DNA from: Mycolicibacterium porcinum
GTDB taxonomy: Bacteria > Actinomycetota > Actinomycetes > Mycobacteriales > Mycobacteriaceae
Length of the DNA stretch: 64,000 nucleotides
Assembly: GCA_002086835.1 (NCBI GenBank)
Contig: MVIG01000020.1
Span: 30,794-94,793 of the forward strand
Direction: 5' to 3'
This document shows positions 17,339 through 49,240 of this stretch, in pieces; the stretch's first letter is position 1, and each line of letters opens with the position of its first letter. Both the position numbers and the translations under genes were made by a program. The notes under the pieces are model-generated. The model was not told where the DNA came from. It did not search any database and saw only the letters and a program-made list of their open reading frames with translations.

Positions 17339-17349
17339 ATCGCGGGCCG

Positions 17350-17423: not shown

Positions 17424-17489
17424 AAGGACATGATCACAAGTCTGGTGCTATCCCAATTCAGCTGACGGCGCCGCATGTAATACGTTCCG

Positions 17490-26838: not shown

Positions 26839-26900
26839 AATGACAACCTCCAACTGAATGCCTGAACGTCGACCTCAGCAAAATGCTCAGCCGATCCACT

Positions 26901-32189: not shown

Positions 32190-33011
32190 CTAACCGTCAC
32201 TCGGTGCTGCGGCACCGTCGCTCAGGGACCGCTGCAGGCGACGCATTCTCGCAATCCACCCGTCATAGTCCGCGCCCTTGCCACGGAACATACCCAGGAC
32301 CTCCGGGTGGGGTAGAACCATGAAGCGCTCCGCGCGTACAGCGCGGACCGTCTCCGCCGCGACGTCCGCTGCGCTGATGACGCTGCCGGACTTGATGATC
32401 GACTGTGCGCCGATCCGGCGTGACAGGCCTGAGGAGGAGCGCATTGCGGCGAGAAGGGGCGTGTCGACTCCGAGCGGACACACACAGCTCACTCCTATTC
32501 CCTCCTCGCCGTGGGCGATTGCAAGCCATTCAGCGAATCCGATCGCGGCGTGTTTGGTGACCGCGTACCCCGCCGCGCCCAGTTGCGTCAGCAGGCCGGC
32601 CGCGGATGCGACCGACACGAAGTAACCGCTGCCGCGGCTGCGCCATCCCGGTAACAGCAGCCGGGCGGCATTGACATGAGCGCGCAGGTTGATCGCAAGG
32701 ACCTTGTCCCAGTCGGCGGATTCACCGAGGCCCGCAGCTCCCACGATGCCGGCATTGGCGACGAAGATGTCAACGGGCCCGAAGTGTCGTTCGGCCTCAG
32801 CGATCAAGCTGGTCACGCCGTCAACGGTCGATGCATCCGCCGGGATGCTCGTCGCCGCGTCACCGATGCTCCTGGCCGCTTCGGCAGCGTCATGCTCGTC
32901 GAGGTCGCCGATGACGACCTGTGCTCCATTTCCTGCGAGTTCGACGGCCAGTGCCCGGCCGATTCCTGATCCACCGCCGGTGACGACAGCAACCTTGTTC
33001 TCGATCTGCAT
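32190..33011 (-). CDS. Short-chain dehydrogenase/reductase (SDR)
   Basis: 273 residues: NAD(P) motif VTGGGSGIGRA (about 10-20), DADNAG-type VANAGIVGA, catalytic Ser in SVASAAG and YAVTKHA (Tyr-x3-Lys, about 153-159). Last gene of the 14-gene catabolic run; it may oxidise a 3-hydroxyacyl-CoA or alcohol intermediate. Ribosome site GGGA 5 bp before the ATG. An SDR (Rv1941) also ends the related M. tuberculosis cluster, as I recall. Confidence 0.88.
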   Translation of the reverse strand: MQIENKVAVVTGGGSGIGRALAVELAGNGAQVVIGDLDEHDAAEAARSIGDAATSIPADASTVDGVTSLIAEAERHFGPVDIFVANAGIVGAAGLGESADWDKVLAINLRAHVNAARLLLPGWRSRGSGYFVSVASAAGLLTQLGAAGYAVTKHAAIGFAEWLAIAHGEEGIGVSCVCPLGVDTPLLAAMRSSSGLSRRIGAQSIIKSGSVISAADVAAETVRAVRAERFMVLPHPEVLGMFRGKGADYDGWIARMRRLQRSLSDGAAAPSDG

Positions 33012-33060
33012 TCTGATCCCATCCCCGTCGGTTTGAGGTGACCGCAGTGGCGATGTCGAT

Positions 33061-34728
33061 TCAGCGGGGCAGCACGGTGACGGGAATCTCGCCGGAGTGG
33101 TATCGCTGCCGCATCAGCTTCTTGTCGTATTTGCCGACGCCGGTGCGGGCGATAGAGCCGACCACGGCCCACCGCTCGGGCAGCCACCATCGCTGTACGC
33201 GCTCCTCAAGCCAAGCCTTCAGATCTTCGGCCCGCGCGGCAGAGCCGGGGCGCAAGGTCACCAATGCGAGTGGTCGCTCATCCCAACGGGTGTCAGGTAC
33301 GCCGATCACGGCAGCTTCGACCACATCGGGATGACCGGCCAGAGTGGTTTCAAGGTGCACGGAGCTGATCCATTCGCCGCCGGACTTGATCACGTCTTTG
33401 GCTCGGTCGGTGAGCGTCAGGTACCCGTCTGCACTGATGTGTCCGATGTCGCCGGTGTGGAGCCAGAGTTGTCCGTCCGAGTCGGTGGAGAAGCTCTCGG
33501 CGTCGATGCCGCCGTGGTAGCCGCCAGTGATCCAGGGGCCACGCACCTGCACTTCGCCAACCGATCGGCCGTCGCGGGGCAGAACAGCGCCCGTCTCGTC
33601 GACGACGCGTCCTTTGGCGCCGAACAGGAATCGACCCGTGCTGTTGAGCTTTCGCTGCTGATCGGTCGTGATCGCGTTGTCTGGAACGTCGGCGATGGTA
33701 ACGATGGGACTGGTTTCGGTCATGCCCCACGCTTGGACCAGCGGAACCGCGAATTCATCGCGATACGCGGCGACAAGGGACGCCGGCACCGCGGCGCCGC
33801 CACACAGCACCCGACGCAACGAGTCGATTCGTTGGCCGGGATTGTCGCGCAGCCACAACAGCATGTCGTTGAAAACCGTAGGGACGCCGCCAGACAACGT
33901 GGCGCCGTGTTTGGCGATCATGTCGACGAGCGTGTCGGGCTTGAGGTGGCGGTCCGGCAGTATCAGTGTTGCGCCGGCCATCAGCGACGCATACGGAATG
34001 CCCCACGCGTTGACGTGAAACATCGGGACTATGGGAAGCACCCGGTCACGGGAGGAGATTCCCGCAACGTTGGCCGTACAGACGGCAAGGGCGTGCAGAT
34101 AGACCGACCGATGACTGTAGACCACGCCTTTTGGATCCCCGGTGGTTCCGCTGGTGTAGCACATCGCCGCTGCGCTGTGTTCGTCGAGCACTGGCCACGC
34201 GAACGTGGTCGGCTGGCTGTTCACGAGTTGCTCATAGGCGATCACGTTGGGCACCAGAGGTGATACCTCGGCCAGCTGGGCGTCGGTCGGGTCACCGGCG
34301 ATTACCAGTGCCGCCAGCTCCGGCATCAGCGGCAACGCTGGGAGCAACGTGTCGAGCAAACTGGCATCGGCGACGATGATCTTGTCCCCGGCATGGCAGG
34401 CGATATAGCCGAGTTGCTCAGGCGTGAGCCGAATGTTGAGGGTGTGCAGGATCGCGCCAGAACATGGAACGGCGAGGTATGCCTCGAGGTGCCGCTGGTT
34501 GTTCCACATGAAGGTCGCAACCCGGTCACCGGCTTCGATTCCGAGGCCGGCCAATCCGCTGGCCAGTTGAGCTGCGCGCGTGGCAATCTCAGAGAATGTG
34601 GCGGCTTGTACGGCGGTGTTGGCACCTGCATAGGTGAGGACCCCTGAATCACCGAAGGTGCCGTGGATTCCGTCTAGGATCGCGGTGAGCGTCAGCGGTA
34701 CGTTCTGCATGGTGGCATGGATATCCAT
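33061..34728 (-). CDS. Acyl-CoA synthetase (AMP-binding, FadD-like)
   Basis: 555 residues. Adenylation motifs: CYTSGTTGDPKGVVYSHRS (about 191-209), AWGMTETSP, GELW-type QLWLHTGDIG (about 413-422), and the C-terminal DRAKDVIKSGGEWIS with catalytic-Lys region TGVGKYDKK. It activates a carboxylic acid as a CoA thioester. It is closest in style to medium-chain or aryl acid ligases. Part of the catabolic run, 49 bp before the SDR gene. Confidence 0.9.
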   Translation of the reverse strand: MDIHATMQNVPLTLTAILDGIHGTFGDSGVLTYAGANTAVQAATFSEIATRAAQLASGLAGLGIEAGDRVATFMWNNQRHLEAYLAVPCSGAILHTLNIRLTPEQLGYIACHAGDKIIVADASLLDTLLPALPLMPELAALVIAGDPTDAQLAEVSPLVPNVIAYEQLVNSQPTTFAWPVLDEHSAAAMCYTSGTTGDPKGVVYSHRSVYLHALAVCTANVAGISSRDRVLPIVPMFHVNAWGIPYASLMAGATLILPDRHLKPDTLVDMIAKHGATLSGGVPTVFNDMLLWLRDNPGQRIDSLRRVLCGGAAVPASLVAAYRDEFAVPLVQAWGMTETSPIVTIADVPDNAITTDQQRKLNSTGRFLFGAKGRVVDETGAVLPRDGRSVGEVQVRGPWITGGYHGGIDAESFSTDSDGQLWLHTGDIGHISADGYLTLTDRAKDVIKSGGEWISSVHLETTLAGHPDVVEAAVIGVPDTRWDERPLALVTLRPGSAARAEDLKAWLEERVQRWWLPERWAVVGSIARTGVGKYDKKLMRQRYHSGEIPVTVLPR

Positions 34729-34775
34729 GGATGCGGTCTCTCCGATTGTCTATAGCGCTCAAGAAGTGTGAGGTG

Positions 34776-35891
34776 TCACGGGGCAGCGGCGGAGAGCCTG
34801 CACGGCTCCGAGGTCGCGGCAGGCCCGGAGACGACCAGCTCGCACGCGGACTTCAGCTGTGCATGTTGCACGTAGTCGGCCAAAGTCACTGTCGTGAAAC
34901 CAAGCTCGATCAGCATCGCGGTGATGCAACCTGCGACCAACTCCGGCTGCGGCACCGAGAACCTCGGCGCTGAGGTGATAGGTGGCCGCAGGTACACGAT
35001 GACTCCGCCGTGTGCGGCGATACGCTCGTGACACCTCTCAAATTCGACTCTGCATTCGCAGCCAGAGGCGAGAAGTGGGTCACCATGGACACATTCCGTG
35101 ATGACATACACGGGTGGATCGATATCAGGCACGGAGGTGCCGATGAACACCGTATGCCGAGCGCCCGTCAGGTGGTCTTCGAAGTCGACTGCTCTGAGCG
35201 CCCGGCCTGCCAGTAGGTCCAGTCGGTTCTGAACCAGCGTGACCCGCTGGCGACGTCCATCACCGTGGAAAAGGCGGTGGTGCACGACGCTGTCGATGTG
35301 CACCACCGGCAAGCGATGGTTCTGAGCGAACACACTGACCGCGGGTTCCCGCAGTAGTTCGCCGTCCTCCCCTAGGAGGGCAGCGGTCAGTCCTACAGGT
35401 GGAAGCCCCGCTATGTCACAAAGATCCACCGTCGCCTCGGCGCTCCCCCGGCGCTTGAGCACCCCACAGCCCGCAACCCTCACTGGGAGAACATGACCGG
35501 GCCTCACCAGATCACTTGGCCGGGAGCTGTCGCTTGCCAGAACGCGCGCAGTGCGGGCGCGGTCGGTCGCGCTGATGCCGGTACCGATACCGGATGCGGC
35601 GTCCACCGCCACCGCAAACGTGGGAGCTTCCACATTTGAGTCATCGTCACGGGCCATGGTCGGTAGATCCAGTTCCTCTGCTCGACGTGCCGGCAGCGCC
35701 GCACAAATCAGACCAGAGGTGAACCTCACCAGCCATGCCGTCCAATGCGGCGTGGCATGAGCGGCCGCGATCACTACGTCGGCGACGACCTGGTCATCGG
35801 TGCCGTCGACAACCAGAACCGGAGTCCCAGCACGCAGAGCCGCACCGGCGCGCTCGATCGCCAGCCGAGACACACAGCTGTGCGTCGTCAT
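34776..35891 (-). CDS. RibA1-like protein: RibB/GTP cyclohydrolase II fold with eroded active sites
   Basis: 371 residues aligned along the RibBA plan. The DHBP-synthase half keeps the scaffold (FAVAVDAASGIGTGISATDRA, LVRPGHVLPVRV, AEATVDLCDIAGL). It has lost the metal-binding DRENEGD loop (here DQVVAD) and the GHTEA histidine (here GSAEA). The cyclohydrolase half keeps the three zinc cysteines (ECVHGD...GCEC) but lacks the RGxEGRG catalytic segment. It is therefore unlikely to make riboflavin precursors. It overlaps the flavin reductase stop (ATGA). M. tuberculosis Rv1940 (RibA1) has a similar context, as I recall. Possible roles: ligand binding, or a new reaction on a pathway intermediate. 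Confidence 0.75.
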   Translation of the reverse strand: MTTHSCVSRLAIERAGAALRAGTPVLVVDGTDDQVVADVVIAAAHATPHWTAWLVRFTSGLICAALPARRAEELDLPTMARDDDSNVEAPTFAVAVDAASGIGTGISATDRARTARVLASDSSRPSDLVRPGHVLPVRVAGCGVLKRRGSAEATVDLCDIAGLPPVGLTAALLGEDGELLREPAVSVFAQNHRLPVVHIDSVVHHRLFHGDGRRQRVTLVQNRLDLLAGRALRAVDFEDHLTGARHTVFIGTSVPDIDPPVYVITECVHGDPLLASGCECRVEFERCHERIAAHGGVIVYLRPPITSAPRFSVPQPELVAGCITAMLIELGFTTVTLADYVQHAQLKSACELVVSGPAATSEPCRLSAAAP

Positions 35892-36409
35892 GAGTCATGT
35901 CCGACCGCGAGCGTTCGAAATCGGCTGTCGTGAAACAGAAGCGGCGATGCGTCGAGGTCGGCCGCAGCGGCCTTGACTGCGAGGATGACCACATCATGGT
36001 CACCGGCGGAAACGGTCGTAGAGATCTCGCAGTCGAGTTGAGCAACCGCATCCGACAGCAGCACCGCGTCGGATTCGGTGGCGAACCAGGACACTCCGGC
36101 AAATCGATCCACATTCTTCGCCGCAATCTGCCGGCACGCGGCCTCTTGCCGCGATTCCAGGACGGAGACGCCGAGATGGCGTCCGTCAGCCAGATGCGGC
36201 CAGGTCGTCGACGTGTGCTGCACGCAGATCGACACCAACGCCGGATCGATGGATACCGGGGTGAACGAGGTGGCAACAATCCCGACCGGTTTTCCATCAC
36301 GCAGTGCGCACACGGCCGCGACGCCAGTTGGATAACGACCGTAAAGCCTGCGCAGTTGCGCCATATCCCGGTCAGAGTTCCCGGTGGAAACGGGATCGAG
36401 GGTAGTCAT
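35888..36409 (-). CDS. Flavin reductase (FMN-binding split-barrel family)
   Basis: 173 residues, with signatures YPTGVAAVCALRDGKPVGIVA (first strands), SFTPVSIDPALVSICV and FHDSRF at the end, as in HpaC/NtaB-type reductases that give reduced flavin to two-component monooxygenases. The partner is probably the LLM monooxygenase at the head of the operon. The ATG at 36409 has GGAG 8 bp upstream. Its stop overlaps the RibA1-like start. Confidence 0.88.
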   Translation of the reverse strand: MTTLDPVSTGNSDRDMAQLRRLYGRYPTGVAAVCALRDGKPVGIVATSFTPVSIDPALVSICVQHTSTTWPHLADGRHLGVSVLESRQEAACRQIAAKNVDRFAGVSWFATESDAVLLSDAVAQLDCEISTTVSAGDHDVVILAVKAAAADLDASPLLFHDSRFRTLAVGHDS

Positions 36410-36434
36410 CGCTTGCACTCCGTTCTCGTGGATG

Positions 36435-37190
36435 TCACGCGCCCCTGGCGCGGGCGTAGTCGGCAATAAGGGAGGTGACCGCGTCGAGGCACGCCCCCCC
36501 GAGCCGTTCCGAGGCGCCTTCTGGGTCACCCAGAACCCCGTTGGCGGAGACTGCTCCGATTCCGTCTTGAAATGCCCGATCGAGTAGCCGCTGGTCGACC
36601 TTGCCGGTGTAGCCCCGGACGAACCGGTCGGTGCGGACCTTCTGTGGGTGAAGGGCCAGCATCACCGACGTCTCTGCGATGTCAGCGTGCCCTCCCACGT
36701 TGGCACCCAAAGATGCCACGCTGTCCGCCGCCCCTCGCCATGCGTTCAAGATGGCCTCGGTATCGGAGAAGACGATGACTGTCAGCGGCGCGAGTGCCGC
36801 AGTGAGTCGCACCTCGAAATCACGCATCACGGGATGGTTGCCGATATGCCCGGAGAACATGACGATTCGTTCGAAGCCATCCTTGGCGAGGTGCCGACAG
36901 TAGTCTTCGCACACCGATTCCAGAGTGGACGCGCGAAGTGACAGGGTGCCGGTGAATCCGAGGTGGTGCGGTGAGTACCCCACCCGCACGGTCGGCAGAA
37001 CCAGCGCGCCGCCGAGATGACGCGCGATCCGCACCGCGAGCTCGTCGGCATGATCGGCATCCATCGACAGCGGTAGGTGGCCACCATGCTGTTCGACCGC
37101 TCCCAGCGGGAGAACTGCTGTGCGTGCTCCTTCCGAGATCGCCGCGCTGACCTCGGCGCTTGTCATGAACTCGATCCGGACCTCGTTCAT
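36435..37190 (-). CDS. Creatininase-family metal-dependent amidohydrolase
   Basis: 251 residues. Metal ligands sit in LPLGAVEQHGGHLPLSMDADH (Glu, His and Asp about 28-46), then FSGHIGNH and later GGHADIAETS (about 165-174). The family hydrolyses amide bonds in creatinine, formamides (ArfB) and the mycofactocin peptide (MftE). Here it may open a cyclic amide or remove a formyl group from a catabolite. Starts are tight to the FadD gene (8 bp gap). Confidence 0.85.
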   Translation of the reverse strand: MNEVRIEFMTSAEVSAAISEGARTAVLPLGAVEQHGGHLPLSMDADHADELAVRIARHLGGALVLPTVRVGYSPHHLGFTGTLSLRASTLESVCEDYCRHLAKDGFERIVMFSGHIGNHPVMRDFEVRLTAALAPLTVIVFSDTEAILNAWRGAADSVASLGANVGGHADIAETSVMLALHPQKVRTDRFVRGYTGKVDQRLLDRAFQDGIGAVSANGVLGDPEGASERLGGACLDAVTSLIADYARARGA

Positions 37191-37198
37191 CGATTCAC

Positions 37199-39106
37199 CT
37201 ACTTCAGATCGCCGCCGGCGAACCGCGCCTGGCGGGCAATCTCCCCCTGCTCACCGGCGTCGTACATCTCATCGACAAGGTCGCGGAAAGACGCGAGGAT
37301 CGCCGAGCGCCGTATGGTGCCCTTGAGAGTCAACTCGCCGTCCGCGGCCGAGAGCAGCCGTGGCAAGACGCGGAACTTCTTCAATTGCAGCGGCCTTGAA
37401 AGCTCAGAATTGACTTCGTCGATCCATGTGGCAAGCGCGGCATCTCGGTCAGCCGCGGGCATCGCCCGCGCCTCCGCACTCACGCCGACCAGTACGGTCA
37501 GATACTTGCGTCCTTCACCGACGACAATCGCCTCATCAATGAGCGGACTGGCCTTGAGTCGGAGCTCGATCGGCTGAGGGCTGACGGTTTTTCCGCCGCT
37601 GGTCTTGAGGACATCTTTGATTCTGCCGATGATCCGCACTTCCCCGTCGCGGTCCATCTCTACCAGATCGCCTGTGCGATACCAGCCGTGGTCCATCGCA
37701 GCAGCCGTCGCCTCAGGGGCGTCGAGGTAACCGCTGAAGAGGCAGGGGCTGCGCAGCTGCAGCTCCCCCTCTCCAGATACGCGCGCCTTCCACCGTGGGT
37801 CGGGCATGGCCTTCCCGATTGTTCCGGGCGGCGGGAATGCGCGATCCCACTGGGCAAGAACCGATCCGCAGGTCTCTGTCGTACCGAAGAGCTCACGCAG
37901 GTCGAGTCCCCACATCTGCCACAACGCCGTTACCTCGGGGGACATGCTGCCCGAAGCAGTCCAGGCGACCCTGATGCGGTCCATGCCAACCTTTGCGCGT
38001 AGGGGAAGGAACACCCGACGGAGGCACACGTTGTACAGATAGTTGAAATACCACGGGACGTCCTGATCTCTCCAGCGCATCTCGCTTACTTTGCGAGCAA
38101 TCCGCATCGCTATCGCATACCGCAGTCGGAAGGCGGCGCCAGACTCCGAAAGCTGCTGTAACACCTCGCCGGCCAACTTCTCGTGCATTCGCGGTGGCCA
38201 CAGGACCGCTGTCGGTCGCACGCTGACGAGCGCGTCCAGACGTTGATCCATGGTGCAGTAAGTAATGACGAGGCGAGTCATGATCGGGGTGAATACGCCG
38301 ATCAATGCGGGCGCAACATGCGAGAGGCCGAGAAACGCAACGAGGTCGTGCCTGATCCTGCCGACCTCTGGGTACGACATGGCGAAGGCGAGCACCGAGT
38401 ACTGCAAGGTTCGGTGCGTGTGGATCACACCTTTCGGCGCACCGGTAGATCCCGACGTGTAGAACAGGGCCGCGGGCTGGTCGATATCGCCCGCCTCAAC
38501 CAGCGTCGCGAACAACTCGGGTTCGGTCGCCCCGCGGGATCGACCGCAATGGCGGAGTTCTCCCCAGTGCACCGCCCGCACAGAATCCGAAAAGCCCTGC
38601 GGTTTGGTGTCGAACCCGATCGTCGCACGCAGTCGTGGCAGCTCGGCCGAAACGGCGGAAACTTTCGCGACATCTGCCGCGTTCTCTGCGAAAACGACTG
38701 TGGCCTCGGAACTCTCCAGCGCCTGTTTGACTTCGGCGACCGAGCTCGTGGGGTACACGCCCACGGGGACACCGCCAAGACTGAGTATCGCCAGGGCGGC
38801 CACGACCCACTCGTGGCGAGTAGACGACACGATGGCCACCCGGTCGCCTGGCACGGCACCCAGATCATGCAAACCGAGCGCAACCTCCCGCACCTGCTCG
38901 AGATATTCGCTCCACGTGGTCGGGTGGGCTGCCCCGTTCCCCCAGCTGCAATACGCGATCACGTCGGGTTCACGCTCGGCGCGGTCGCAGAGCATCTGAG
39001 CGAAAGTTCGATTCACGGCATCGAACTCCGTCAAGGTGTCCAACACCGGCACCTCCGTACATCCCGTCGACGACGCGGTCGCTGCGGGTGTGTTCTGCCT
39101 CTTCAT
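37199..39106 (-). CDS. Long-chain-type acyl-CoA synthetase (FadD15-like)
   Basis: 635 residues; motifs FYTSGSTGAPKGVIHTHRT (P-loop, about 211-229), LFGTTETCG, YRTGDLVEMD and GRIKDVLKTSGGKTVSP (about 512-528). The length and the GGK motif fit the AMP-forming long-chain group. Close to the Liv-type importer, it probably activates the imported acid or a side-chain product; the second ligase downstream suggests two activation steps. Confidence 0.9.
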   Translation of the reverse strand: MKRQNTPAATASSTGCTEVPVLDTLTEFDAVNRTFAQMLCDRAEREPDVIAYCSWGNGAAHPTTWSEYLEQVREVALGLHDLGAVPGDRVAIVSSTRHEWVVAALAILSLGGVPVGVYPTSSVAEVKQALESSEATVVFAENAADVAKVSAVSAELPRLRATIGFDTKPQGFSDSVRAVHWGELRHCGRSRGATEPELFATLVEAGDIDQPAALFYTSGSTGAPKGVIHTHRTLQYSVLAFAMSYPEVGRIRHDLVAFLGLSHVAPALIGVFTPIMTRLVITYCTMDQRLDALVSVRPTAVLWPPRMHEKLAGEVLQQLSESGAAFRLRYAIAMRIARKVSEMRWRDQDVPWYFNYLYNVCLRRVFLPLRAKVGMDRIRVAWTASGSMSPEVTALWQMWGLDLRELFGTTETCGSVLAQWDRAFPPPGTIGKAMPDPRWKARVSGEGELQLRSPCLFSGYLDAPEATAAAMDHGWYRTGDLVEMDRDGEVRIIGRIKDVLKTSGGKTVSPQPIELRLKASPLIDEAIVVGEGRKYLTVLVGVSAEARAMPAADRDAALATWIDEVNSELSRPLQLKKFRVLPRLLSAADGELTLKGTIRRSAILASFRDLVDEMYDAGEQGEIARQARFAGGDLK

Positions 39107-39108
39107 GG

Positions 39109-40368
39109 TCAGTCCAGTTCCTCAGCCAAGTCGTAGAGTTCGGTCCCCGCGTAACGCTGCGTGACCTTCCACTTGCCATCGACCACCTGGAATACGCCGT
39201 AGTCAGGCGTCGCTGTGTTCGTCGGCGTGTAGTCGACGGGACCGGATGCTCCCTGGTAATCGATTTTCTCACCTCTGGTCAATAGCTCCAGTCCTTCATC
39301 GATCGTGTAGACCGGCTTTCCACCAGGATCTGTTACCTTGTGCAAGTTTTCGGCGATCGCGACTCCTGTCGCTTGTCCCCCCGCTGCCATCGCCAGAACG
39401 CCCGAGACGATCGCGTCGTAGGTCAGGCCCGCGGTGGGCTGTTCAGCAATCTCATTGCCTTTCTGCTCTCCGTACGCCTCGGTCAGAAGCTTGCGCATGC
39501 CCGCGATGGCCGGAGAATCAGCGGACATGGCGGACTGACCGAATGCGCCTTCGAGGTACTGAGCGCCAACCTCCTTGAGCAAGACCGGGTAAGACAGCTC
39601 GGCAATGAGGGACCATTTGCCGGGCAGACCCAATCGCGCCCACTCGCGCAAGATCGGCACAGCCGGCTCAACAGAGCCTGCGAGGAAAACGATGTCGGGC
39701 TCGGGTTCGAAGGCGCTGCGGACCTCGGGGAGATAAGAAGTTTGACCGCCGTTGAACGCGACCTTCGCCACGACCTTGCCGCCGAGCTTTGTGTAGAAGC
39801 TGTCGACCCAGTTGGACGTGCTGCGCGCGGAGTCCACGTTCTCGTACAGGATGGACACGGTCTTGAATCCTCGGTCCCACAGGTTCTTCGCCACCGTCAA
39901 ACCGTCGAAAGTGTCTGGCCCGACGGTGCGGAAGGTGTAGGGATTGGATCGGGCGTCGAATTCCACCATGCCCGCGTACGGCGATGCAATCACCACCTCG
40001 TTGCGCTCGGCCTGGTTGAGCGTCGCCATGAAGGTCGCCGATGTCGGACCGACGATAAACTGTGCGTTGTCGCTGTTGATGAGCTTGGTCACCGCACGGA
40101 CTCCGTCCTCGGCGTTGAACTTCTCATCCTCGCTCACCACTTTGAGCTTGGTTCCGTTGATGCCGCCAAGCTTGTTGACGTGCTCCACAACCGCGCGGGT
40201 CATCGAATCGACCGGGCCACCCCATACCGCGGCTTCTCCGGACAACGGTGCGGCAACACCGATGACTGCCGCCCCGTCGCCGTCGCCACAGCCCATCAGG
40301 GCTGCCCCGGAAGCAACGACGACGGCCATCACCGATAGCTTGCGCGCCGTAATCCCGACTGTGTCCAT
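39109..40368 (-). CDS. Liv-type ABC transporter substrate-binding lipoprotein
   Basis: 419 residues: signal peptide with lipobox LMGC (Cys about 27), then a type I periplasmic-binding fold beginning IGVAAPLSGEAAVWG. The ligand is unknown; Liv-type binding proteins near acyl-CoA ligases often bind aromatic or branched acids or amides. It follows LivF by 28 bp in the run. Confidence 0.9.
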   Translation of the reverse strand: MDTVGITARKLSVMAVVVASGAALMGCGDGDGAAVIGVAAPLSGEAAVWGGPVDSMTRAVVEHVNKLGGINGTKLKVVSEDEKFNAEDGVRAVTKLINSDNAQFIVGPTSATFMATLNQAERNEVVIASPYAGMVEFDARSNPYTFRTVGPDTFDGLTVAKNLWDRGFKTVSILYENVDSARSTSNWVDSFYTKLGGKVVAKVAFNGGQTSYLPEVRSAFEPEPDIVFLAGSVEPAVPILREWARLGLPGKWSLIAELSYPVLLKEVGAQYLEGAFGQSAMSADSPAIAGMRKLLTEAYGEQKGNEIAEQPTAGLTYDAIVSGVLAMAAGGQATGVAIAENLHKVTDPGGKPVYTIDEGLELLTRGEKIDYQGASGPVDYTPTNTATPDYGVFQVVDGKWKVTQRYAGTELYDLAEELD

Positions 40369-40396
40369 ATCTCAAATCTCCTGTACCAGAACCAAT

Positions 40397-41116
40397 TCAG
40401 GCGGTCGGAATCCGGGCGCCCAAGAATATTTCGGTGAAGTTCGGGTCGGCCAGCAGCTCCGGCCCGCTCGCCTCGTGTCGGATCTGACCCGAGTCCATCA
40501 GAAACACTCGCTCGCACAAGGGGAGAATCTGCTTCGGGTGCTCCTCGATAACCCAGAGCACGCCGGTCCCCCCGCGTTCGACGCGGCAGATCTGTTCGAT
40601 GAGCGAATCGACGATCTGGGGAGCGAGACCCGTCGTGGGCTCGTCGAGGATCAACAGCTTTGGTCTCATCAGCAAGGACGAGGCAATCGCGAGCTGCTGG
40701 CGCTGACCACCCGAAAGGGTTCCCGCTCGCTGCTTGCGTCGCTCGGCAAGGATCGGAAAAGTATCGAAGGCCTCGTCGAGGCGTTCGCGCGGCAGTCCCA
40801 TCGCGCGGGTGACGACATCGAGGTTGTCTTCTACTGACAAAGCCCCAAAGACGTTGCGCAACTGCGGTGTATAGCCCAGTCCGCGGCGTGCCCGGTCACG
40901 CGCCGGCAGCTGATCGAACCTCTCCCCGTCAAGTTTGACCGTCCCACCACGTGCATCGACTACGCCGGCGATGGTCTGGACGAGTGTCGTCTTACCCGCC
41001 CCGTTCGGGCCGATGATGGCGGTGATGGACCCGTGCCCGGCAGTGAGGGTGACGCCTCGGATGATGTTGTTGCGACCATAGCCACTGGTCACATTGTCCA
41101 CCTCAAGCAGTGGCAT
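40397..41116 (-). CDS. Liv-type ABC transporter ATPase (LivF-like)
   Basis: 239 residues: Walker A GPNGAGKTT, signature LSGGQRQQLAIASSL, Walker B LLILDEPTTGL, and H-loop VIEEHP. The start at 41116 (MPLLEVDN) overlaps the LivG stop by 14 bp. It powers the importer with the LivG-like ATPase. Confidence 0.92.
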   Translation of the reverse strand: MPLLEVDNVTSGYGRNNIIRGVTLTAGHGSITAIIGPNGAGKTTLVQTIAGVVDARGGTVKLDGERFDQLPARDRARRGLGYTPQLRNVFGALSVEDNLDVVTRAMGLPRERLDEAFDTFPILAERRKQRAGTLSGGQRQQLAIASSLLMRPKLLILDEPTTGLAPQIVDSLIEQICRVERGGTGVLWVIEEHPKQILPLCERVFLMDSGQIRHEASGPELLADPNFTEIFLGARIPTA

Positions 41117-41888
41117 GGTGCGCCCCCAGATAGGTTTCGACAACGACAGGATTGCTGATGACCTGGGCCGGTGGGCCCTTCGCGATGACTCGGCCGTCGT
41201 ACATGACATACAGTGCATCGGAGATCGCGTTGATGAACGACATGTTGTGCTCGATCACCAGGACGGTCATGTTGTCTGTGGTGCACAGATCCCGCACCGT
41301 CAACGACAGCCGATGCTGATCCTCAGGGTTGAGCCCGGACGACGGCTCATCCAGCATCAGCAATGATGGCGGCTCCATGAGCAGACGTGCGATCTGGAGC
41401 AAACGTCCTTGCCCGATAGACAGATCTGCTGCGCGGGTATTCGCCAGCTCAGTCAGCGCCATGCGATCCAGCAACTCCCAGGCGCGGTCGATAAGCCCAC
41501 GTTCCCCGACTGCCACGTCGCGTGGTGACGTGAAAAGACGCCAGAGGCGCTCACCGGGCACCGAGCGGGCCGACGTCAGCAGATTCTGCAGAACTGACAT
41601 GTCGGTGAAATCGGCGGTGTTCTGGAAGGTCCGCTTGAGTCCCATCCGCGCGAGCCGATGCGTCGGCATCCCCGTGATGTCACGTCCGTGGAACATCACC
41701 GCCCCTGTGTCAGGTCGGAGGAACCCGGAGATCGCGTTGAACAACGTCGTTTTCCCGGAGCCGTTTGGTCCGATCAGGCCGGTAACCGCGCTGGGGCTGA
41801 TCTTCATCGCGACACTGTCGAGGGCCCGTAGCTGGCCGAAAGCCTTTACCAGCCCGACGACTTCGAGCGCAGAATGCGTGGCCATCAT
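41103..41888 (-). CDS. Liv-type ABC transporter ATPase (LivG-like)
   Basis: 261 residues: Walker A GPNGSGKTT, signature LSIGQGRLLQIARLL (an SIGQG variant usual in LivG), Walker B LLMLDEPSSGLNPED and H-loop VIEHNMSFI. The C-terminal tail LGAHHA is typical of LivG. ATGA overlap with LivM. Confidence 0.92.
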   Translation of the reverse strand: MMATHSALEVVGLVKAFGQLRALDSVAMKISPSAVTGLIGPNGSGKTTLFNAISGFLRPDTGAVMFHGRDITGMPTHRLARMGLKRTFQNTADFTDMSVLQNLLTSARSVPGERLWRLFTSPRDVAVGERGLIDRAWELLDRMALTELANTRAADLSIGQGRLLQIARLLMEPPSLLMLDEPSSGLNPEDQHRLSLTVRDLCTTDNMTVLVIEHNMSFINAISDALYVMYDGRVIAKGPPAQVISNPVVVETYLGAHHATA

Positions 41889-42874
41889 CGGTCTCCTGCC
41901 GTGACCGTAGCCAGCGCAGGATGGGAGATGTTTGCCGTGTCGGGTCTCGGATAGCTGGCCAATCGCGGCCGGAACAGACCCCCGGGCCAGAACAGCAGGA
42001 TCACGATCAAGACGAGGCCCTGCAGGGCATCCTGCAGGCTGGCCATCACTTCAGAGGTGAGAAAGTCCGCCTCGATATAGGTGAGCCCTTCCCGTAGGCC
42101 GAGAAGCACCACCGCACCGAGCACCGCACCCGTATTGCTGCCGATCCCCCCGATGATCAACGCGATGAAGACGGTGAAGGTGATGTTCACGTTGAAGAAG
42201 GACGGCGTCAATATCGACAGATACCAGACGTACATGACCCCAGCCAGGCCCATGAAGAACGACGCGAACACAAAGGCTTTGAGTTTGACTGTGTAGACAT
42301 TGATCCCCAGCGAGCGAGCAACCGCCTCGTTCTGGTTCACCGCAAGCAGGCTTCGGCCGTACGCCGACTGCGTCACGCGGCGGAAGACCAGGATGCTAAT
42401 TCCCAATACCGCCAACACAAGTGCCGCGACATACAGCGACTGAGCTCGTCCCGGGATGCTGTCAAGATCGGGCACCGGCGCGTCCAGGAGACCGCGCGCG
42501 CCATTGGCGATCGCCGGCTGGTTGATGAAGAGCTGACGTATCACCTCGGCCAATGCCAGGGCCACCACCGCCAGGTACTCCCCGCTGACCCTCAGCAGGC
42601 CGCATCCCACTACGAGAGCGAGAAGTGCCGCGGTCAGGCCGCCGATGACGGTGCCGGCCCACCACGGCAGGCCCAGCCCGAGAATGTAGGTGTACGAGCC
42701 GGACTGGGCCGGCATCACAGCGAGCGCGTAGGAGTACGCTCCGATTCCGAAAAACGCTGCGACACCGAAATTGACCATGCCGCCAACACCGAACTGCAGG
42801 TTCAACGCCAGGGCCGCGACGGCGTAGATGCCCATCAGGATGACCAGTCCGCCGGCAATCAGCAGAGTGCTCAC
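41885..42874 (-). CDS. Liv-type ABC transporter permease (LivM-like)
   Basis: 329 residues, about 8-10 membrane helices. The LivM signature NLQFGVGGMVNFGVAAFFGIGAY lies at about 25-47 and FVALIIGGIGS-type ALIIGGIGSNTGAVLGA near 240-256. It overlaps LivH and LivG by 4 bp on either side. Confidence 0.9.
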   Translation of the reverse strand: MSTLLIAGGLVILMGIYAVAALALNLQFGVGGMVNFGVAAFFGIGAYSYALAVMPAQSGSYTYILGLGLPWWAGTVIGGLTAALLALVVGCGLLRVSGEYLAVVALALAEVIRQLFINQPAIANGARGLLDAPVPDLDSIPGRAQSLYVAALVLAVLGISILVFRRVTQSAYGRSLLAVNQNEAVARSLGINVYTVKLKAFVFASFFMGLAGVMYVWYLSILTPSFFNVNITFTVFIALIIGGIGSNTGAVLGAVVLLGLREGLTYIEADFLTSEVMASLQDALQGLVLIVILLFWPGGLFRPRLASYPRPDTANISHPALATVTAGDR

Positions 42875-43737
42875 GCCACACGCTCCTTCGGTCCGCTGAA
42901 GAGACCCTCAGGGCGGACAAAGACGACCAGGGCGATGACGGCGAAAACCACCATCTGGGTGTATTCGGAAGGAATCGCCAAGGTGGCCAGGCTCGATGTG
43001 AGCCCGACAACGACCGCCGCGACCATCACACCGTAAATACTCCCGAGCCCACCGATGATTGCAGCGGCGGAGATGACCAGCACTTGATCCCAGCCGAGCT
43101 CGGGATAAATCCGCGCCGTGAGCGCGATCAGGGTTCCCGCCAGCGCCGCCAGCGCGCTGGCCACCGCCCAGGTGAGGTACTGCAGGTGCGAAGTGTTGAT
43201 TCCCCGAATCTGGGCAAGCGCCGGGTTGTTCGACATCGCTCGCAACGCCCTGCCGCTGTACGACCTGGCGAGCCAAAAGTGCAATGCCACGACGACCAAG
43301 GCAGCAGTGCCGATGACGGCGATCTGGTCGGCGCCTGCAACCGCGACCCCGCCGATGCTGATGGTCTTCTGCAACGGCACATTCAGCGTCTTCACACCGA
43401 ACCCGGTGAAGAGCTCGATCATCGCGTGCAGGAAGAAGGCGAGTCCCACGGACGCGATCATCGGGATGTAATGCGGGCGCTGGCGCATCGGCCAGAAGAT
43501 CATTCTCGCGCTCACCAGTCCGACCATCGTCGTGACAACGATGGCCAGGACACACGACACGATCCAGTGCAATCCGACCAACACGTTGAACCCGTATGCG
43601 CTGAACCCGCTGAGCACGATGAGCTGTGGATGCGCGATGTTGAGGAAACCCTCGACGCGGCGTAGGAGTTCGAAGCCCACCGTCGCGAGCAGCAGAACAG
43701 CGCCGCTGACCAATCCGGCGACAACGACGGTCAACAC
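42871..43737 (-). CDS. Liv-type ABC transporter permease (LivH-like)
   Basis: About 288 residues from a GTG at 43737 (an ATG at 43776 inside the upstream gene is the alternative). Signatures are LVSGAVLLLATVGFELLRRVEGFLNIAH near the N-terminus and AAAIIGGLGSIYGVMVAAVVV later. The start overlaps the end of the enoyl-CoA hydratase gene. Confidence 0.9.
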   Translation of the reverse strand: MLTVVVAGLVSGAVLLLATVGFELLRRVEGFLNIAHPQLIVLSGFSAYGFNVLVGLHWIVSCVLAIVVTTMVGLVSARMIFWPMRQRPHYIPMIASVGLAFFLHAMIELFTGFGVKTLNVPLQKTISIGGVAVAGADQIAVIGTAALVVVALHFWLARSYSGRALRAMSNNPALAQIRGINTSHLQYLTWAVASALAALAGTLIALTARIYPELGWDQVLVISAAAIIGGLGSIYGVMVAAVVVGLTSSLATLAIPSEYTQMVVFAVIALVVFVRPEGLFSGPKERVA

Positions 43738-44537
43738 GACTGTGCCTTGGCCGCGGGAGCCTTCCTGCCACTCCACCGTTGCCGCAACTCTCGTGCGGCC
43801 GGGTCGTCGAAATAATCGGCAGCGGCCTTCAGCGTGCGTTGCAGGGACGCCTCATCGCGCGCGTCGTCCGCAGCGTTGACGCTGCCCTTCAAGGCGCCAT
43901 AGAGTACCGGAGCCTTCGAGCCGGCAGCGCGCGCCGTTGCGACAGCCGCGGAGATCAGCTCCCCGGGACAGGAGACGAGTTCGTCGATGACGCCGATGTC
44001 GAGAGCGTGCTGCGCGTCGAAAAGCTCACCCGACAGGATGATCCGCCGGGTAACGCGTACACCGAGCACCCGGTTGGCTCGTTGGATCCCCTTGTCCGCC
44101 GGTAGCAGTCCATGATTGATCTCCGGAAACCCGAACCGCGCCGAGTTGACGGCCAACACGCTGTCCGAAAAGAGTGCGACCTCCATACCGCCGCCAACAC
44201 AGTGCCCATTGATCGCGCTGACCACCGGACGCGGGTAGCGATCCATCGCCACGAGTAGTGCGTGGAATTCCCGCATGCGGATCTGTATCTCGCCGGCGAG
44301 CGCACCCTCCAGCTCCTTGATGTCGCCTCCGCCGCTGAAGAACCGCTCTCCCTTGCCGGTGAGGACGATCGGTGGTGCGTCCGGCGTGGCGCGGAGCTGC
44401 TCGAACAGGCTGGCAAGATCGTGGATGAGCTGGCGGTTCATCGCATTTGCCGGTGGCCTGTCCAACGCGACCACCAGAACGCCATCGTGGTCAGCAGTAT
44501 CGAGTGTGGCGGACTGGCCGGTCGCGAGTGCGCTCAT
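43731..44537 (-). CDS. Enoyl-CoA hydratase/isomerase family protein
   Basis: 268 residues, crotonase fold. The first oxyanion segment is GERFFSGGGDIKELEG (about 63-78) and the second is NGHCVGGGMEVALFSD (about 108-123), followed by FGFPEINHGLLP. It may hydrate an enoyl-CoA or open a ring. Gene tight to the second crotonase (3 bp). Confidence 0.9.
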   Translation of the reverse strand: MSALATGQSATLDTADHDGVLVVALDRPPANAMNRQLIHDLASLFEQLRATPDAPPIVLTGKGERFFSGGGDIKELEGALAGEIQIRMREFHALLVAMDRYPRPVVSAINGHCVGGGMEVALFSDSVLAVNSARFGFPEINHGLLPADKGIQRANRVLGVRVTRRIILSGELFDAQHALDIGVIDELVSCPGELISAAVATARAAGSKAPVLYGALKGSVNAADDARDEASLQRTLKAAADYFDDPAARELRQRWSGRKAPAAKAQSC

Positions 44538-44540
44538 AGG

Positions 44541-45404
44541 TCACCTGGCTACGTTCGCAGGTTGCGGTCCCAGGACAGAGTGCCCTTCGCCGCGTGCGGA
44601 CGGGTACTCCGGCGGACGGCCTTCGCGGAAGGCCTGCCGGGCCTCGAAGTAGTCTGCACTCGCGAAGCCGATGACCTCCAGCGCCGCCGAAAGTTCGTGC
44701 TGTGGAAGGGCATTGGTGAGCCATCCGGTGTTCAGGGACCGCTTTGTCCAGCGAATCGCCTGTTGCGAGCCCTGCGCAAGTTCGTCGGCGATTTCGAGGG
44801 CGCGATCCAGCACATTCTCCCTCGGTGCGGTGAGACTCACCAAGCCGATGCGTTCGGCTTCGATGCCGGTCATACTCGCCGAAGTCAACTGGTAATACTT
44901 CGTCTTGGCCATCCCCACGAGCAACGGCCAGATGAGCGAGGAGTGGTCACCGGCAACCACACCGACACGGGTGTGACCGTCTCGAAGCAGTGCATCTTCG
45001 GCAGCGACGCTGATGTCAGCCAGAAGCGCCATCGACAATCCCCAGCCAACCGCGGGACCGTTGATCGCCGAGATGAGTGGCTTGTCCATGTTGAGGATGG
45101 CCGTGATCCGCTTGCGCTCGCCCTCCATGAGCGCCACCGCTTCGTCCAGCGTCGGCTCTGGCTGGCGTACGTCCATGCCCGTGCAGAAGCCACGGCCCGC
45201 ACCGGTGATGACGGCAACCCGCGTTTCCGGGTCTCGGTCGACGTCCACCCAGATCTCCGAAAGATGATCGAACATCGGCATCGTCAAGGCATTGAGCCGG
45301 TCGGGTCTGTTGATCGTGATGAGCAGAACACCATTGGGTCTGCGTTCGATCAGGATCTCCTCGGGGTAGCGGCTGAAGATGTCATCAGCGGCCAATTTGC
45401 TCAT
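44541..45404 (-). CDS. Enoyl-CoA hydratase/isomerase family protein
   Basis: 287 residues, crotonase fold with GAGRGFCTGMDVRQ (about 67-80) and NGPAVGWGLSMALLADI (about 114-130), then ALLRDGHTRVGVVAGD. Only distantly like its neighbour, so a different step is likely. The start overlaps the LLM stop (ATGA). Confidence 0.9.
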   Translation of the reverse strand: MSKLAADDIFSRYPEEILIERRPNGVLLITINRPDRLNALTMPMFDHLSEIWVDVDRDPETRVAVITGAGRGFCTGMDVRQPEPTLDEAVALMEGERKRITAILNMDKPLISAINGPAVGWGLSMALLADISVAAEDALLRDGHTRVGVVAGDHSSLIWPLLVGMAKTKYYQLTSASMTGIEAERIGLVSLTAPRENVLDRALEIADELAQGSQQAIRWTKRSLNTGWLTNALPQHELSAALEVIGFASADYFEARQAFREGRPPEYPSARGEGHSVLGPQPANVAR

Positions 45405-46600
45405 CGTGTCTCTCCTACCTTGACAGCACTCTTATGGGAATTCGACTGGGATTTGGACTCTTCGAACGCTTCGAGCTCCGCATAATGAGCGGGCCGGGCC
45501 GTGCGGATGTCGGCCAGAATCGCGTCAGCGGGGCGGACCACGGCCCGTGGGTTCTTGAACCTGGGGATGACGTACTTGCCGAAGAGCTCGATCGACTTCA
45601 TCAGCTCTCTGTGTGGGAGTCCATCGATTCTCATCACGATGGCGTCTGCGCCGAGGTCGGCGAATCGCTGCACTTGTGCCGCACAGTCATCCGGATCGCC
45701 CACGATGAATCCGGACGATTCCTCGAACATGTATCGCTCGTCGTTGAAGTCGACGTTCCGCACCGCACCCATGTACTGATAGTCGGCCGACAACTTGGAC
45801 AGGCGCTCATACGCGTCAGTCGAAAGAGCCACCGTCTCTTTCAGATTCCGCGCCCATGTGAGGGCTTCCTGACGGGTCTCGGCACAGTGCATTCCGCCTC
45901 CGACCGCGACGAGCTTCTGCGCTTGCAGCGGATAGGTATGCGTGGCTCCGTCGAGGGCATCGTCGTAGATGCGCAACATGCTCTCGACAAACTCGAAGCC
46001 CAGGTAGAAGCCACCGACGATAGCCCCGATGCCGAGTTCGGCGGCCTTGCGCACCGACTCGGGGCTGCCGGCTGCCATCGAGATGGGGGGATAGGGCCGT
46101 TGAATTGCCTTGGGCACCAAGCTTCGCGGCGGAATCTTGTAGTGCTCGCCAACATAGGAGAACACGTCATTGTGCAGGGCCCGGCGAATCACCTCCAGGC
46201 CTTCTATGAGCTGAGCCTTGTTCTCGCTTGGTTCAACTTCGAAAGCGCGCAGCGCAAGTGTCGTGTTCCCCCGCCCCACTCCGAGTTCCACTCGGCCGCT
46301 GGACAGGATGTCCTCGGTTGCCAGCCGTTCGGCAACGCGAAGGGCATGGTTGATGCGCGTGGGCAGGAGGGTAACCAAGTGCATGAATCGGATGCGCTTG
46401 GTCAGCGCCATCAGGTAGGGATAGATGACCTCAGGTGCGGAGGTTGTCGCCGTGCCGATCGCGACGTGCTGCTCGGACGTTCCGAACGCGTCGAACCCCA
46501 CCTCCTCCGCAAGTAGGACCTCGTCCACGAGCTCGCGGTAGCGGTGCTCATGGGTATGTCCCGGGACCGTCTCGCCTTCGCTCATGAAAATGAACCGCAT
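45401..46600 (-). CDS. LLM-class flavin-dependent monooxygenase
   Basis: 399 residues, bacterial luciferase-like TIM barrel, with signatures FDAFGTSEQH, ILSSGRVELGVGRGNT and SMAAGSPESVRKAAELGIG. It uses reduced flavin, here probably supplied by the split-barrel reductase of the same run. The ATG at 46600 (MRFIFMSEGE) is chosen by family start; the frame extends 21 codons upstream. First gene of the catabolic run, divergent from a TetR regulator. The M. tuberculosis Rv1936 cluster also starts with an LLM enzyme, as I recall. Confidence 0.9.
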   Translation of the reverse strand: MRFIFMSEGETVPGHTHEHRYRELVDEVLLAEEVGFDAFGTSEQHVAIGTATTSAPEVIYPYLMALTKRIRFMHLVTLLPTRINHALRVAERLATEDILSSGRVELGVGRGNTTLALRAFEVEPSENKAQLIEGLEVIRRALHNDVFSYVGEHYKIPPRSLVPKAIQRPYPPISMAAGSPESVRKAAELGIGAIVGGFYLGFEFVESMLRIYDDALDGATHTYPLQAQKLVAVGGGMHCAETRQEALTWARNLKETVALSTDAYERLSKLSADYQYMGAVRNVDFNDERYMFEESSGFIVGDPDDCAAQVQRFADLGADAIVMRIDGLPHRELMKSIELFGKYVIPRFKNPRAVVRPADAILADIRTARPAHYAELEAFEESKSQSNSHKSAVKVGETR

Positions 46601-49136: not shown

Positions 49137-49240
49137 TTTTTAATCTCTCTTGATGATGTCCACGCACGCGGCGGTGCAACGAGCCGCTACATGGGAGTGT
49201 CAAATGCGCATCGAAGCGCACATGGACAGTGGGTCGCCGA

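What the first reader, a model, noticed from the sequence alone, without database searches (positions are those of the whole stretch)
32190..46600. A 14-gene catabolic run with importer, two-component monooxygenase, CoA ligases and a RibA1-like protein
Seen: 14 genes on one strand over 14.4 kb with gaps under 50 bp and many 4-bp overlaps. They include an LLM monooxygenase, a flavin reductase, two crotonases, two acyl-CoA ligases, a creatininase-family hydrolase, an SDR and a full Liv importer. Known (from memory): Rv1933c-Rv1941 of M. tuberculosis shares an LLM enzyme, EchA, flavin reductase, RibA1 and SDR in one place with no known pathway. Inference: uptake, oxidation, amide hydrolysis, CoA activation and beta-oxidation-like degradation of an N-containing acid. 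This is the best candidate for an undescribed system in the window.
Basis: partly seen in the sequence, partly recalled or inferred. Interest (0 to 1): 0.85.

Follow-up and report, generated by a model that had tools for sequence, protein, structure and literature searches.

The report
Operon predicted to degrade N-ring compounds
A soil-type mycobacterium carries a set of genes, shared by scattered unrelated bacteria, that probably takes in and breaks down a ring-shaped nitrogen compound with a luciferase-like oxygenase; one gene looks like a vitamin B2 enzyme but lacks the parts that do that job.

Summary
The 14-gene run is real. A six-gene core (luciferase-like monooxygenase LLM1, non-hydratase crotonase EchA, hydratase EchB, FadD11-like ligase, creatininase, flavin reductase) was found in 14 of 14 named loci retrieved with LLM1; related clusters lie on plasmids of Rhodococcus, Streptomyces, Azospirillum, Burkholderia, Paraburkholderia and Bradyrhizobium. 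Liv importer, FadD_b and SDR are optional. An operator-like site overlaps a conserved promoter. LLM1 resembles tetramethylpyrazine- and pyridine-plasmid LLMs (33-40%) more than mel2 MelF (about 25%; 99). Best reading: oxidative opening of an N-heterocyclic acid, amide hydrolysis, CoA-linked degradation, perhaps feeding a linked 2-oxoacid dehydrogenase. The substrate is unknown. The Rv1933c-Rv1941 parallel holds only for flavin reductase, RibA1 and SDR (42). RibA1 lacks residues of both riboflavin active sites. Degenerate RibA1 paralogues have a same-strand LLM within 4.2 kb in 22 of 22 loci examined; true RibA2, 1 of 19, on the other strand. In 6 of 15 LLM1-positive mycobacteria a PrpD-family gene takes RibA1's slot.

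The parts
45401..46597 (-). LLM1, two-component-type luciferase-like monooxygenase; core
   Evidence: PF00296; ATG at 46597 chosen because the listed TTG start (46663) falls inside the conserved promoter; dN/dS 0.02-0.07
44541..45404 (-). EchA, crotonase lacking both hydratase-type glutamates, with H144/D153; core
   Evidence: PF00378, NF005595 above cut-off, residue check
43731..44537 (-). EchB, enoyl-CoA hydratase with both glutamates; core
42871..43776 (-). LivH-type permease; accessory
   Evidence: PF02653; absent from the distant mycobacterial and nocardial loci
41885..42874 (-). LivM-type permease; accessory
   Evidence: PF02653
41103..41888 (-). LivG-type ATPase; accessory
   Evidence: PF00005, BCA_ABC_TP_C
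40397..41218 (-). LivF-type ATPase; accessory (true start probably near 41116)
   Evidence: PF00005; start inferred from the translation
39109..40368 (-). Branched-chain-amino-acid-type binding protein; accessory
   Evidence: PF13458; PDB hits to amino-acid/amide binding proteins
37199..39106 (-). FadD11-like AMP-forming acyl-CoA ligase; core
   Evidence: PF00501; 240 bits against a FadD11 cut-off of 950
36435..37190 (-). Creatininase-family hydrolase; core
   Evidence: PF02633; motifs conserved to Azospirillum and Burkholderia
35888..36529 (-). Flavin reductase (true start probably 36409); core
   Evidence: PF01613
34776..35891 (-). RibA1-like degenerate RibBA: residues of the DHBP-synthase and GTP cyclohydrolase II active sites lost, three zinc-type cysteines kept
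   Evidence: fold model
33061..34728 (-). FadD_b, second AMP-forming ligase; accessory
32190..33011 (-). SDR; accessory
46853..47530 (+). TetR-family regulator, divergent
   Evidence: PF00440; beside LLM1 in most relatives
46622..46637 (-). Operator-like site GTTAAGGATCGTTCAC over the -10 of the LLM1 promoter
46635..46663 (-). Promoter TTGACA-N17-TACGTT for the 14-gene run
   Evidence: TTGACA identical in 15 of 15 aligned upstream regions; not listed by the consensus scan
46799..46814 (.). Second operator-like palindrome ATTAATATTCATTAAT on the TetR side
27110..29461 (+). E1 of a 2-oxoacid dehydrogenase (type not assigned), linked to the LLM1 core
28837..30525 (+). ORF holding E2 (lipoyl plus acyltransferase; real start probably near 29458)
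26353..26853 (-). Lrp/AsnC-type regulator, linked in many relatives
30874..31617 (+). IclR-family regulator, convergent at the far end

Best explanation
A catabolic operon, probably repressed by the adjacent TetR protein, for an N-heterocyclic (pyridine/pyrazine/pyrrole-like) carboxylic acid or its precursor. Shown: conserved gene set, conserved promoter with an operator-like site, exchangeable transporters, conserved creatininase motifs, two different crotonases, degenerate RibA1. Inferred: the compound enters by the Liv importer (MFS carriers stand there elsewhere); the flavin reductase supplies reduced FMN to LLM1, which opens the ring oxidatively; the creatininase-family enzyme hydrolyses the resulting amide; the FadD11-like ligase makes the CoA ester; EchA cleaves a C-C bond or isomerises, EchB hydrates, the SDR oxidises; a 2-oxoacid product is passed to the linked E1/E2 dehydrogenase. 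The order of ligase and oxygenase is not known. RibA1 is an accessory of the flavin monooxygenase, not a riboflavin-biosynthesis enzyme.
For: Six-gene core in 14 of 14 loci found with LLM1; LLM, two crotonases, FadD11-like ligase and creatininase again together in Streptomyces, Azospirillum, Burkholderia, Paraburkholderia and Bradyrhizobium, with a flavin reductase by annotation. Amidase plus Rid protein stand in Arthrobacter sulfonylureivorans and Pseudonocardia clusters that lack creatininase. LLM1 is 40% identical to the LLM beside TpdB (named tetramethylpyrazine oxygenase subunit) and an amidase in R. opacus 1CP, and 33-38% to LLMs in R. pyridinivorans and on Arthrobacter 68b p2MP, against about 25% to MelF. 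Liv-type importers also in the R. opacus VOC-14 and Bradyrhizobium versions, MFS carriers in others. Promoter and operator-like site conserved. E1 in 15 of 15 LLM1-positive versus 32 of 233 negative genomes.
Against: 33-40% identity in the LLM superfamily does not fix a substrate: the genome has 93 LLM matches, and LLM1 is just as similar (34-35%) to the LLMs of Aminobacter MSH1 and pYKAM101, for which I have no link to an N-heterocycle. That p2MP is a pyridine plasmid is recalled. The amidase clusters differ in more than the hydrolase: they lack EchA, and their ligase is nearer FadD_b than FadD11, so they may serve another substrate. Flavin reductases of the Streptomyces, Azospirillum and B. 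cepacia clusters are only 21-30% identical to this one. No close characterised creatininase-family enzyme was found (best PDB E 1.5e-18). EchA's His/Asp pair recalls 6-oxocamphor hydrolase, which fits a cyclic diketone. 32 genomes have the E1 without LLM1, and the association is not corrected for relatedness. No expression or biochemistry.
Confidence: 0.47

Rival explanations
1. Type II Baeyer-Villiger pathway for an alicyclic or terpenoid ketone acid: LLM1 inserts oxygen into a ring ketone, the creatininase-family enzyme opens the lactone, EchA is a retro-Claisen hydrolase, then CoA-linked degradation.
For: Diketocamphane monooxygenases are two-component luciferase-family enzymes (listing and abstract start of PMC4631483 and PMC6352141). 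EchA lacks both hydratase glutamates and has H144/D153; phmmer aligns EchA 10-229 to 6-oxocamphor hydrolase 11-229, so these would be about His145/Asp154 of that enzyme (their catalytic role is recalled, not read).
Against: LLM1's nearest named neighbour gene is a pyrazine oxygenase subunit; amidase plus Rid protein, not a lactonase, stand in related clusters.
Confidence: 0.2
2. mel2-like (luxA/luxG/luxH-like) redox-defence locus rather than a nutrient pathway.
For: Shares flavin reductase, RibA1 and SDR with mel2-type clusters; [quoted passage not shown]
Against: Oxygenase and crotonase are not close; importer, ligases and creatininase not seen in the mel2-type runs; patchy occurrence, 15 of 248 genomes, fits catabolism.
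Confidence: 0.07
3. RibA1 still feeds riboflavin synthesis to the flavin-dependent oxygenase (luxH-like supply).
For: In Azospirillum, Paraburkholderia, Bradyrhizobium and pYKAM101 a gene in or near the LLM cluster keeps RENEGD/REGEGD and GHTEA motifs, so a DHBP synthase that may be active is a companion there; p2MP has a riboflavin kinase nearby. Three of 12 operon-type sequences still align a Glu at the first motif glutamate.
Against: Of the canonical residues R40, E43, G44, H156 and T157 the 12 operon-type sequences keep none (0 of 12 each), and E41 in 3 of 12; cyclohydrolase E315, R317, I319 in 0 of 12. PrpD takes the slot in six mycobacteria. Mycobacterial RibA1 could not replace RibA2 (PMC11302143 passages) and a review says only rv1415 is functional (PMC12855090 passage); both concern other mycobacteria.
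Confidence: 0.07
4. Biosynthetic or detoxifying cluster (product made or drug modified) rather than catabolic.
For: LLMs, ligases and creatininase-family enzymes also occur in biosynthesis (recalled).
Against: Importers recur at the locus; no carrier protein or synthase gene in the run; linked 2-oxoacid dehydrogenase.
Confidence: 0.06

Closest known systems
Tetramethylpyrazine (tpd) and pyridine catabolic clusters with an LLM oxygenase
   Same: LLM1 33-40% identical over about 365 residues; amide hydrolase and flavin reductase nearby in R. opacus 1CP and p2MP, RidA in p2MP
   Different: The stretches read list no AMP ligase, crotonase or creatininase-family gene; PLSDB gene tables are incomplete
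mel2 locus (Rv1936-Rv1941; melF-melK)
   Same: Flavin reductase (51-54%), degenerate RibA1 (37-40%) and SDR (35-38%) in one run with an LLM
   Different: LLM 24-25%, crotonase 26-27%; mel2-type runs carry an 845-aa Fer2/FAD/NAD oxidoreductase and an alpha/beta hydrolase; no importer, ligase or creatininase in the run
Rut pyrimidine and trigonelline (Tgn) pathways (recalled)
   Same: LLM plus flavin reductase opens an N-heterocycle, then amide hydrolysis
   Different: No CoA ligase/crotonase core; relation recalled, not tested here
Paa/Box CoA-dependent aerobic aromatic pathways (recalled)
   Same: Ligase, oxygenase, unusual crotonase, hydratase, dehydrogenase logic
   Different: Oxygenase is an LLM, plus an amide-hydrolase-type gene
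RibBX (A. baumannii, PDB 6mnz) and RibA2 (PDB 4i14)
   Same: Same two-domain fold by model (4i14 E 2e-23, 6mnz E 8e-20; rmsd 7-8 A over the whole chain)
   Different: Operon RibA1 lacks DHBP-synthase as well as cyclohydrolase residues

Membership tests
N-heteroaromatic ring-cleaving LLM cluster (tpd/pyridine type) | LLM oxygenase closer to tpd/pyridine LLMs than to other LLM groups | tested here: inconclusive
   33-40% versus about 25% to MelF and no full-length match to LLM2-type; but 34-35% to two LLMs of unknown substrate, and the deep branching order is unresolved
N-heteroaromatic ring-cleaving LLM cluster (tpd/pyridine type) | Flavin reductase and amide-hydrolase-type gene in the same cluster | tested here: met
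   (creatininase family and flavin reductase in 14 of 14 loci); that it hydrolyses an amide is inferred
N-heteroaromatic ring-cleaving LLM cluster (tpd/pyridine type) | Cleaves an N-heteroaromatic ring | not testable with these tools
   Needs an enzyme assay
mel2 locus | Orthologous MelF oxygenase | tested here: not met
   about 25% identity, separate group
mel2 locus | MelG-type oxidoreductase and MelH-type alpha/beta hydrolase between LLM and flavin reductase | tested here: not met
mel2 locus | Flavin reductase followed by RibA1 | tested here: met
Bifunctional RibBA (riboflavin biosynthesis) | DHBP-synthase motifs (RENEGD, GHTEA) | tested here: not met
Bifunctional RibBA (riboflavin biosynthesis) | Complete GTP cyclohydrolase II domain (three Cys plus EGRGI and downstream residues) | tested here: not met
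   Cys kept in 12, 11 and 11 of 12 operon-type sequences; EGRGI residues in 0-1 of 12
Creatininase family | Family profile and metal-site motifs | tested here: met
   PF02633 E 4e-61; EQHG, H.GN and HAD.AET motifs conserved in the nine mycobacterial orthologues, slightly varied in the plasmid ones; ligand assignment recalled
Enoyl-CoA hydratase (EchA) | Two catalytic glutamates (positions recalled) | tested here: not met
   the two positions hold S and H in EchA; EchB has Glu at both

The most novel reading that the evidence does not exclude
Mycobacteria and relatives have a family of RibBA-derived proteins that no longer make riboflavin precursors (including the mel2 type) and are dedicated partners of luciferase-like monooxygenases, for example binding the ribityl-phosphate of FMN to hand reduced flavin from the reductase to the oxygenase, or having acquired a new catalytic step that a PrpD-family enzyme can replace.
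Probability: 0.3. Interest if true: 0.82.

Novelty: new variant of a known kind. Interest (0 to 1): 0.6.

Why it matters
It defines a catabolic module found in two phyla (LLM oxygenase, two unlike crotonases, CoA ligase, creatininase-family hydrolase, flavin reductase) for which my searches (open-licence papers only) listed no description, with a predicted promoter and operator to test. It also bears on an open question in print: what RibA1 does in mycobacteria (PMC11302143 asks whether and when it contributes to riboflavin). The answer suggested here is that RibA1-type proteins belong to LLM monooxygenase systems, which also bears on the unexplained mel2 locus.

Tried and rejected
Rejected: mel2 orthology of the whole run; RibA1 as a luxH-like flavin-supply enzyme in this operon, my own first idea; a wider TetR regulon in this genome (the two other pattern sites, C9:127234 and C70:100627, overlap a called gene start and a called gene end). 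The LLM tree has long branches; the tree leaves Pyr_68b, pYKAM101, MSH1 and MelF unresolved. Searches listed no paper on this cluster, and search 105 none that gives the 6-oxocamphor hydrolase residues; the library holds open-licence papers only.
Full report
OBSERVATION. The window lies in an unnamed 6.96-Mb genome (contig 16) of a genus whose named members at this locus are Mycobacterium and Mycolicibacterium; nearest there are Mycobacterium sp. URHD0025 and Mycolicibacterium peregrinum (LLM1 98-99%). The 14 ORFs are present, intact and on one strand. All gaps are 49 bp or less and four of 13 junctions overlap by 4 bp. The run stops at a divergent TetR gene and a convergent IclR gene. LLM1 most likely starts at 46597: the longer TTG start lies inside a conserved promoter.

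CONSERVATION. Orthologues were found with RibA1 in 248 genomes of the genus and with an LLM1 alignment in the named genome collection (14 loci: 11 mycobacteria, two Nocardia, one Rhodococcoides; that search used two peptide patterns, so it is a lower bound). All 14 loci hold LLM1, EchA, EchB, FadD11-like ligase, creatininase and flavin reductase; RibA1 is in 12 of 14. In L082 the ligase lies on the other strand at the far end. Importer, FadD_b and SDR vary: the importer is missing from G087, G009, G186 and G177 and from the loci L074, L075 and L078-L085; MFS carriers stand nearby in several. With LLM1 as query, 15 of 248 genomes of the genus have an orthologue of at least 82% identity; a sixteenth match, G020 (37%, two stops), was not counted. 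In a sample of 401 genomes of the family 9 match at E 1e-100.

OTHER PHYLA. A protein search of 72,556 plasmids found 24 records at E 1e-40; I read 13 regions, one without annotation. R. opacus VOC-14 has the mycobacterial order with importer and RibA1 (own gene calls). Streptomyces SAT1 has TetR, creatininase, LLM, two crotonases, flavin reductase, ligase. Azospirillum, B. cepacia, Paraburkholderia and Bradyrhizobium have crotonase, creatininase, LLM, crotonase, ligase in that order (LLM 41-44%, creatininase 46-52%, crotonases 37-44%, ligase 32-35%) with a flavin reductase by annotation. The flavin reductases I compared (Streptomyces, Azospirillum, B. cepacia) are only 21-30% identical to the window's. 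The Bradyrhizobium locus has its own Liv-type importer. Arthrobacter sulfonylureivorans and Pseudonocardia have LLM (53-56%), an EchB-like crotonase, a ligase nearer FadD_b, amidase, a Rid protein and flavin reductase, but no creatininase, EchA or FadD11-like gene listed. I take the amidase as a hint, not proof, that the creatininase-family enzyme acts on an amide.

OXYGENASE. LLM1 is 40% identical to an R. opacus 1CP LLM whose neighbour is annotated TpdB, tetramethylpyrazine oxygenase subunit, with an amidase next, 38% to one in R. pyridinivorans beside an amidase, and 33% to one on Arthrobacter 68b p2MP beside flavin reductase and amidohydrolase. That p2MP is a pyridine plasmid is recalled. 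Two LLMs of unknown substrate (pYKAM101 35%, Aminobacter MSH1 34%) are equally near. MelF-type LLMs are at about 25%. The tree supports the group of LLM1 with the Streptomyces, Arthrobacter and Pseudonocardia proteins (96/98) but not the deeper order. LLM1 and EchA have the lowest dN/dS of the nine genes measured (0.02-0.07; synonymous sites are near saturation for the two most distant genomes).

CROTONASES. EchB keeps a Glu at both hydratase positions (recalled). EchA has S and H there; the H is H144, nine residues before D153, and the H and D are conserved in the Azospirillum, Burkholderia and Streptomyces counterparts. phmmer places EchA 10-229 on 6-oxocamphor hydrolase 11-229, so the pair would fall near residues 145/154, which I recall as catalytic there; I found no paper in the library to confirm it. 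EchA is therefore probably a C-C hydrolase or isomerase.

REGULATION. In an alignment of 15 upstream regions (window plus 14) TTGACA is identical in all, followed in the window after 17 nt by TACGTT and by an operator-like GTTAAGGATCGTTCAC over the -10, whose TTAA core is identical in all 15. A second copy, ATTAATATTCATTAAT, lies on the TetR side. The pattern RTTAANNNNNRTTMAY has only four places in the whole genome, two of them here; the others overlap called gene ends and look accidental. The tighter pattern TTAATNNNNATTMA has one place in the window, read on both strands, against 0.01 expected. That TetR binds there is inferred.

LINKED GENES. A 2-oxoacid dehydrogenase E1 (27110-29461), its E2 and an Lrp-type regulator lie just beyond the IclR gene. 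E1 occurs in 15 of 15 LLM1-positive genomes and 32 of 233 others (Fisher p 2e-12, which ignores relatedness). By the coordinates, 13 of 15 have it within about 25 kb, on either side of the operon; G077 and G084 do not, though L122 from G077 holds two further E1 matches near the operon. The E1 beside the Bradyrhizobium cluster is only 26% identical and of another type. I infer that the pathway yields a 2-oxoacid.

RIBA1. The operon RibA1 keeps the RibBA fold (model pLDDT 72, pTM 0.74; Foldseek best match RibA2 4i14). In the window RENEGD reads DQVVAD, GHTEA reads GSAEA, and the cyclohydrolase EGRGI region is gone. I compared 12 operon-type, 11 mel2-type and 11 third-type sequences with 19 canonical ones (plus two more, L055 and L060). 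Kept in the three families in turn: R40 0/12, 1/11, 0/11; E41 3/12, 0/11, 0/11; E43 0/12, 1/11, 0/11; H156 0/12, 0/11, 11/11; cyclohydrolase G318 1/12, 0/11, 1/11 and I319 none. So the third type still has its GHTEA histidine. By contrast 41 of 261 canonical-invariant sites, including GIS, D116, R117 and three zinc-type cysteines, are kept in at least 90% of each family; one operon-type sequence, L079, lacks the second cysteine pair. dN/dS of 0.19-0.28 shows constraint. Loss of activity is a prediction.

RIBA1 AND LLM. In 22 of 22 degenerate paralogue loci a same-strand LLM lies within 4.2 kb (11 of them within 12 bp), against one of 19 canonical RibA2 loci, on the other strand; a broader LLM profile at E 1e-3 leaves the control at one of 19. 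Limits: the 24 paralogue loci were picked from the list by rank and match range, skipping matches that looked like RibA2, without looking at neighbours; the controls are mostly one syntenic locus, so not 19 independent draws, and two of them (L102, L105) are short on one side. Two of the 24 (L055, L060) proved canonical and also have an LLM within 2.7 kb, which is against a clean split. In the proteobacterial clusters and pYKAM101 a ribB or RibBA gene in or near the cluster keeps the DHBP-synthase motifs (B. cepacia lists none), so possibly active companions exist. Of the 15 LLM1-positive mycobacteria nine have RibA1 at the locus and six have an MmgE/PrpD-family gene in the slot after flavin reductase (family call made on L082 and L084, the rest by 55-76% identity, L124 being the same contig as L082). 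No stretch read holds both. On the tree the one PrpD-type sequence included sits inside RibA1-type ones, so this may be a single exchange.

PRINTED KNOWLEDGE. I read passages, not whole papers: PMC1793995 (mel2 is lux-like, MelJ compared with LuxH), PMC11302143 (RibA1 could not substitute for RibA2; its role is left open), PMC12855090 (only rv1415 functional), PMC8844931 (RibA1 still drawn in the pathway), PMC11036813 (MelH is an epoxide hydrolase, natural substrate unknown). Searches for the cluster itself listed nothing that describes it.

CONCLUSION. The run is a real, scattered catabolic module whose chemistry is most likely LLM-driven opening of an N-heterocyclic acid (0.47), with a Baeyer-Villiger alternative (0.2). 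It is not an orthologue of Rv1933c-Rv1941. Its most unusual part is RibA1: a RibBA-derived protein, predicted inactive in riboflavin synthesis, that keeps company with LLM monooxygenases.

Noticed in passing
window 47826-50776: LLM2 (NtaA/DmoA type, 47826-49136) with a cytosine/purine-type permease (49241-50776) beyond TetR; LLM2 is 59-61% identical to LLMs directly before the third type of degenerate RibA1 in the loci printed. Both genes are also beside the operon in G021 (M. peregrinum, L034) but were not matched there in the other genomes.
   Followed up: partly
L048-L054, L057, L059, L063, L071: Third kind of degenerate RibA1 0-12 bp from an NtaA/DmoA-type LLM; in L050 MFS, GntR/UTRA and ABC permease genes are near; no pathway assigned.
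   Followed up: partly
L055 and L060: Canonical-looking RibBA genes near LLM genes (and a flavin reductase in L060): possible active forerunners of the degenerate partners.
   Followed up: no
L117:7989-13689 (pYKAM101): LLM, flavin reductase, EthD-like, aldehyde dehydrogenase and, on the other strand, a RibBA with intact DHBP-synthase motifs on a mobilizable plasmid.
   Followed up: partly
L121-L124 and L126 (also L082, L084): In PrpD-type loci a FadD11-like gene with a TetR gene lies divergent beyond PrpD; in L121-L124 and L082 no FadD11-like match remains at its usual place, while L126 and L084 have both copies.
   Followed up: no
window 59093-61143: Two adjacent further LLM genes (59093-60199, 60070-61143), 41% identical to each other over the tree columns.
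   Followed up: no
window 17264-17573: tRNA cluster Arg(acg), Arg(ccg), Leu(cag) on the minus strand.
   Followed up: no
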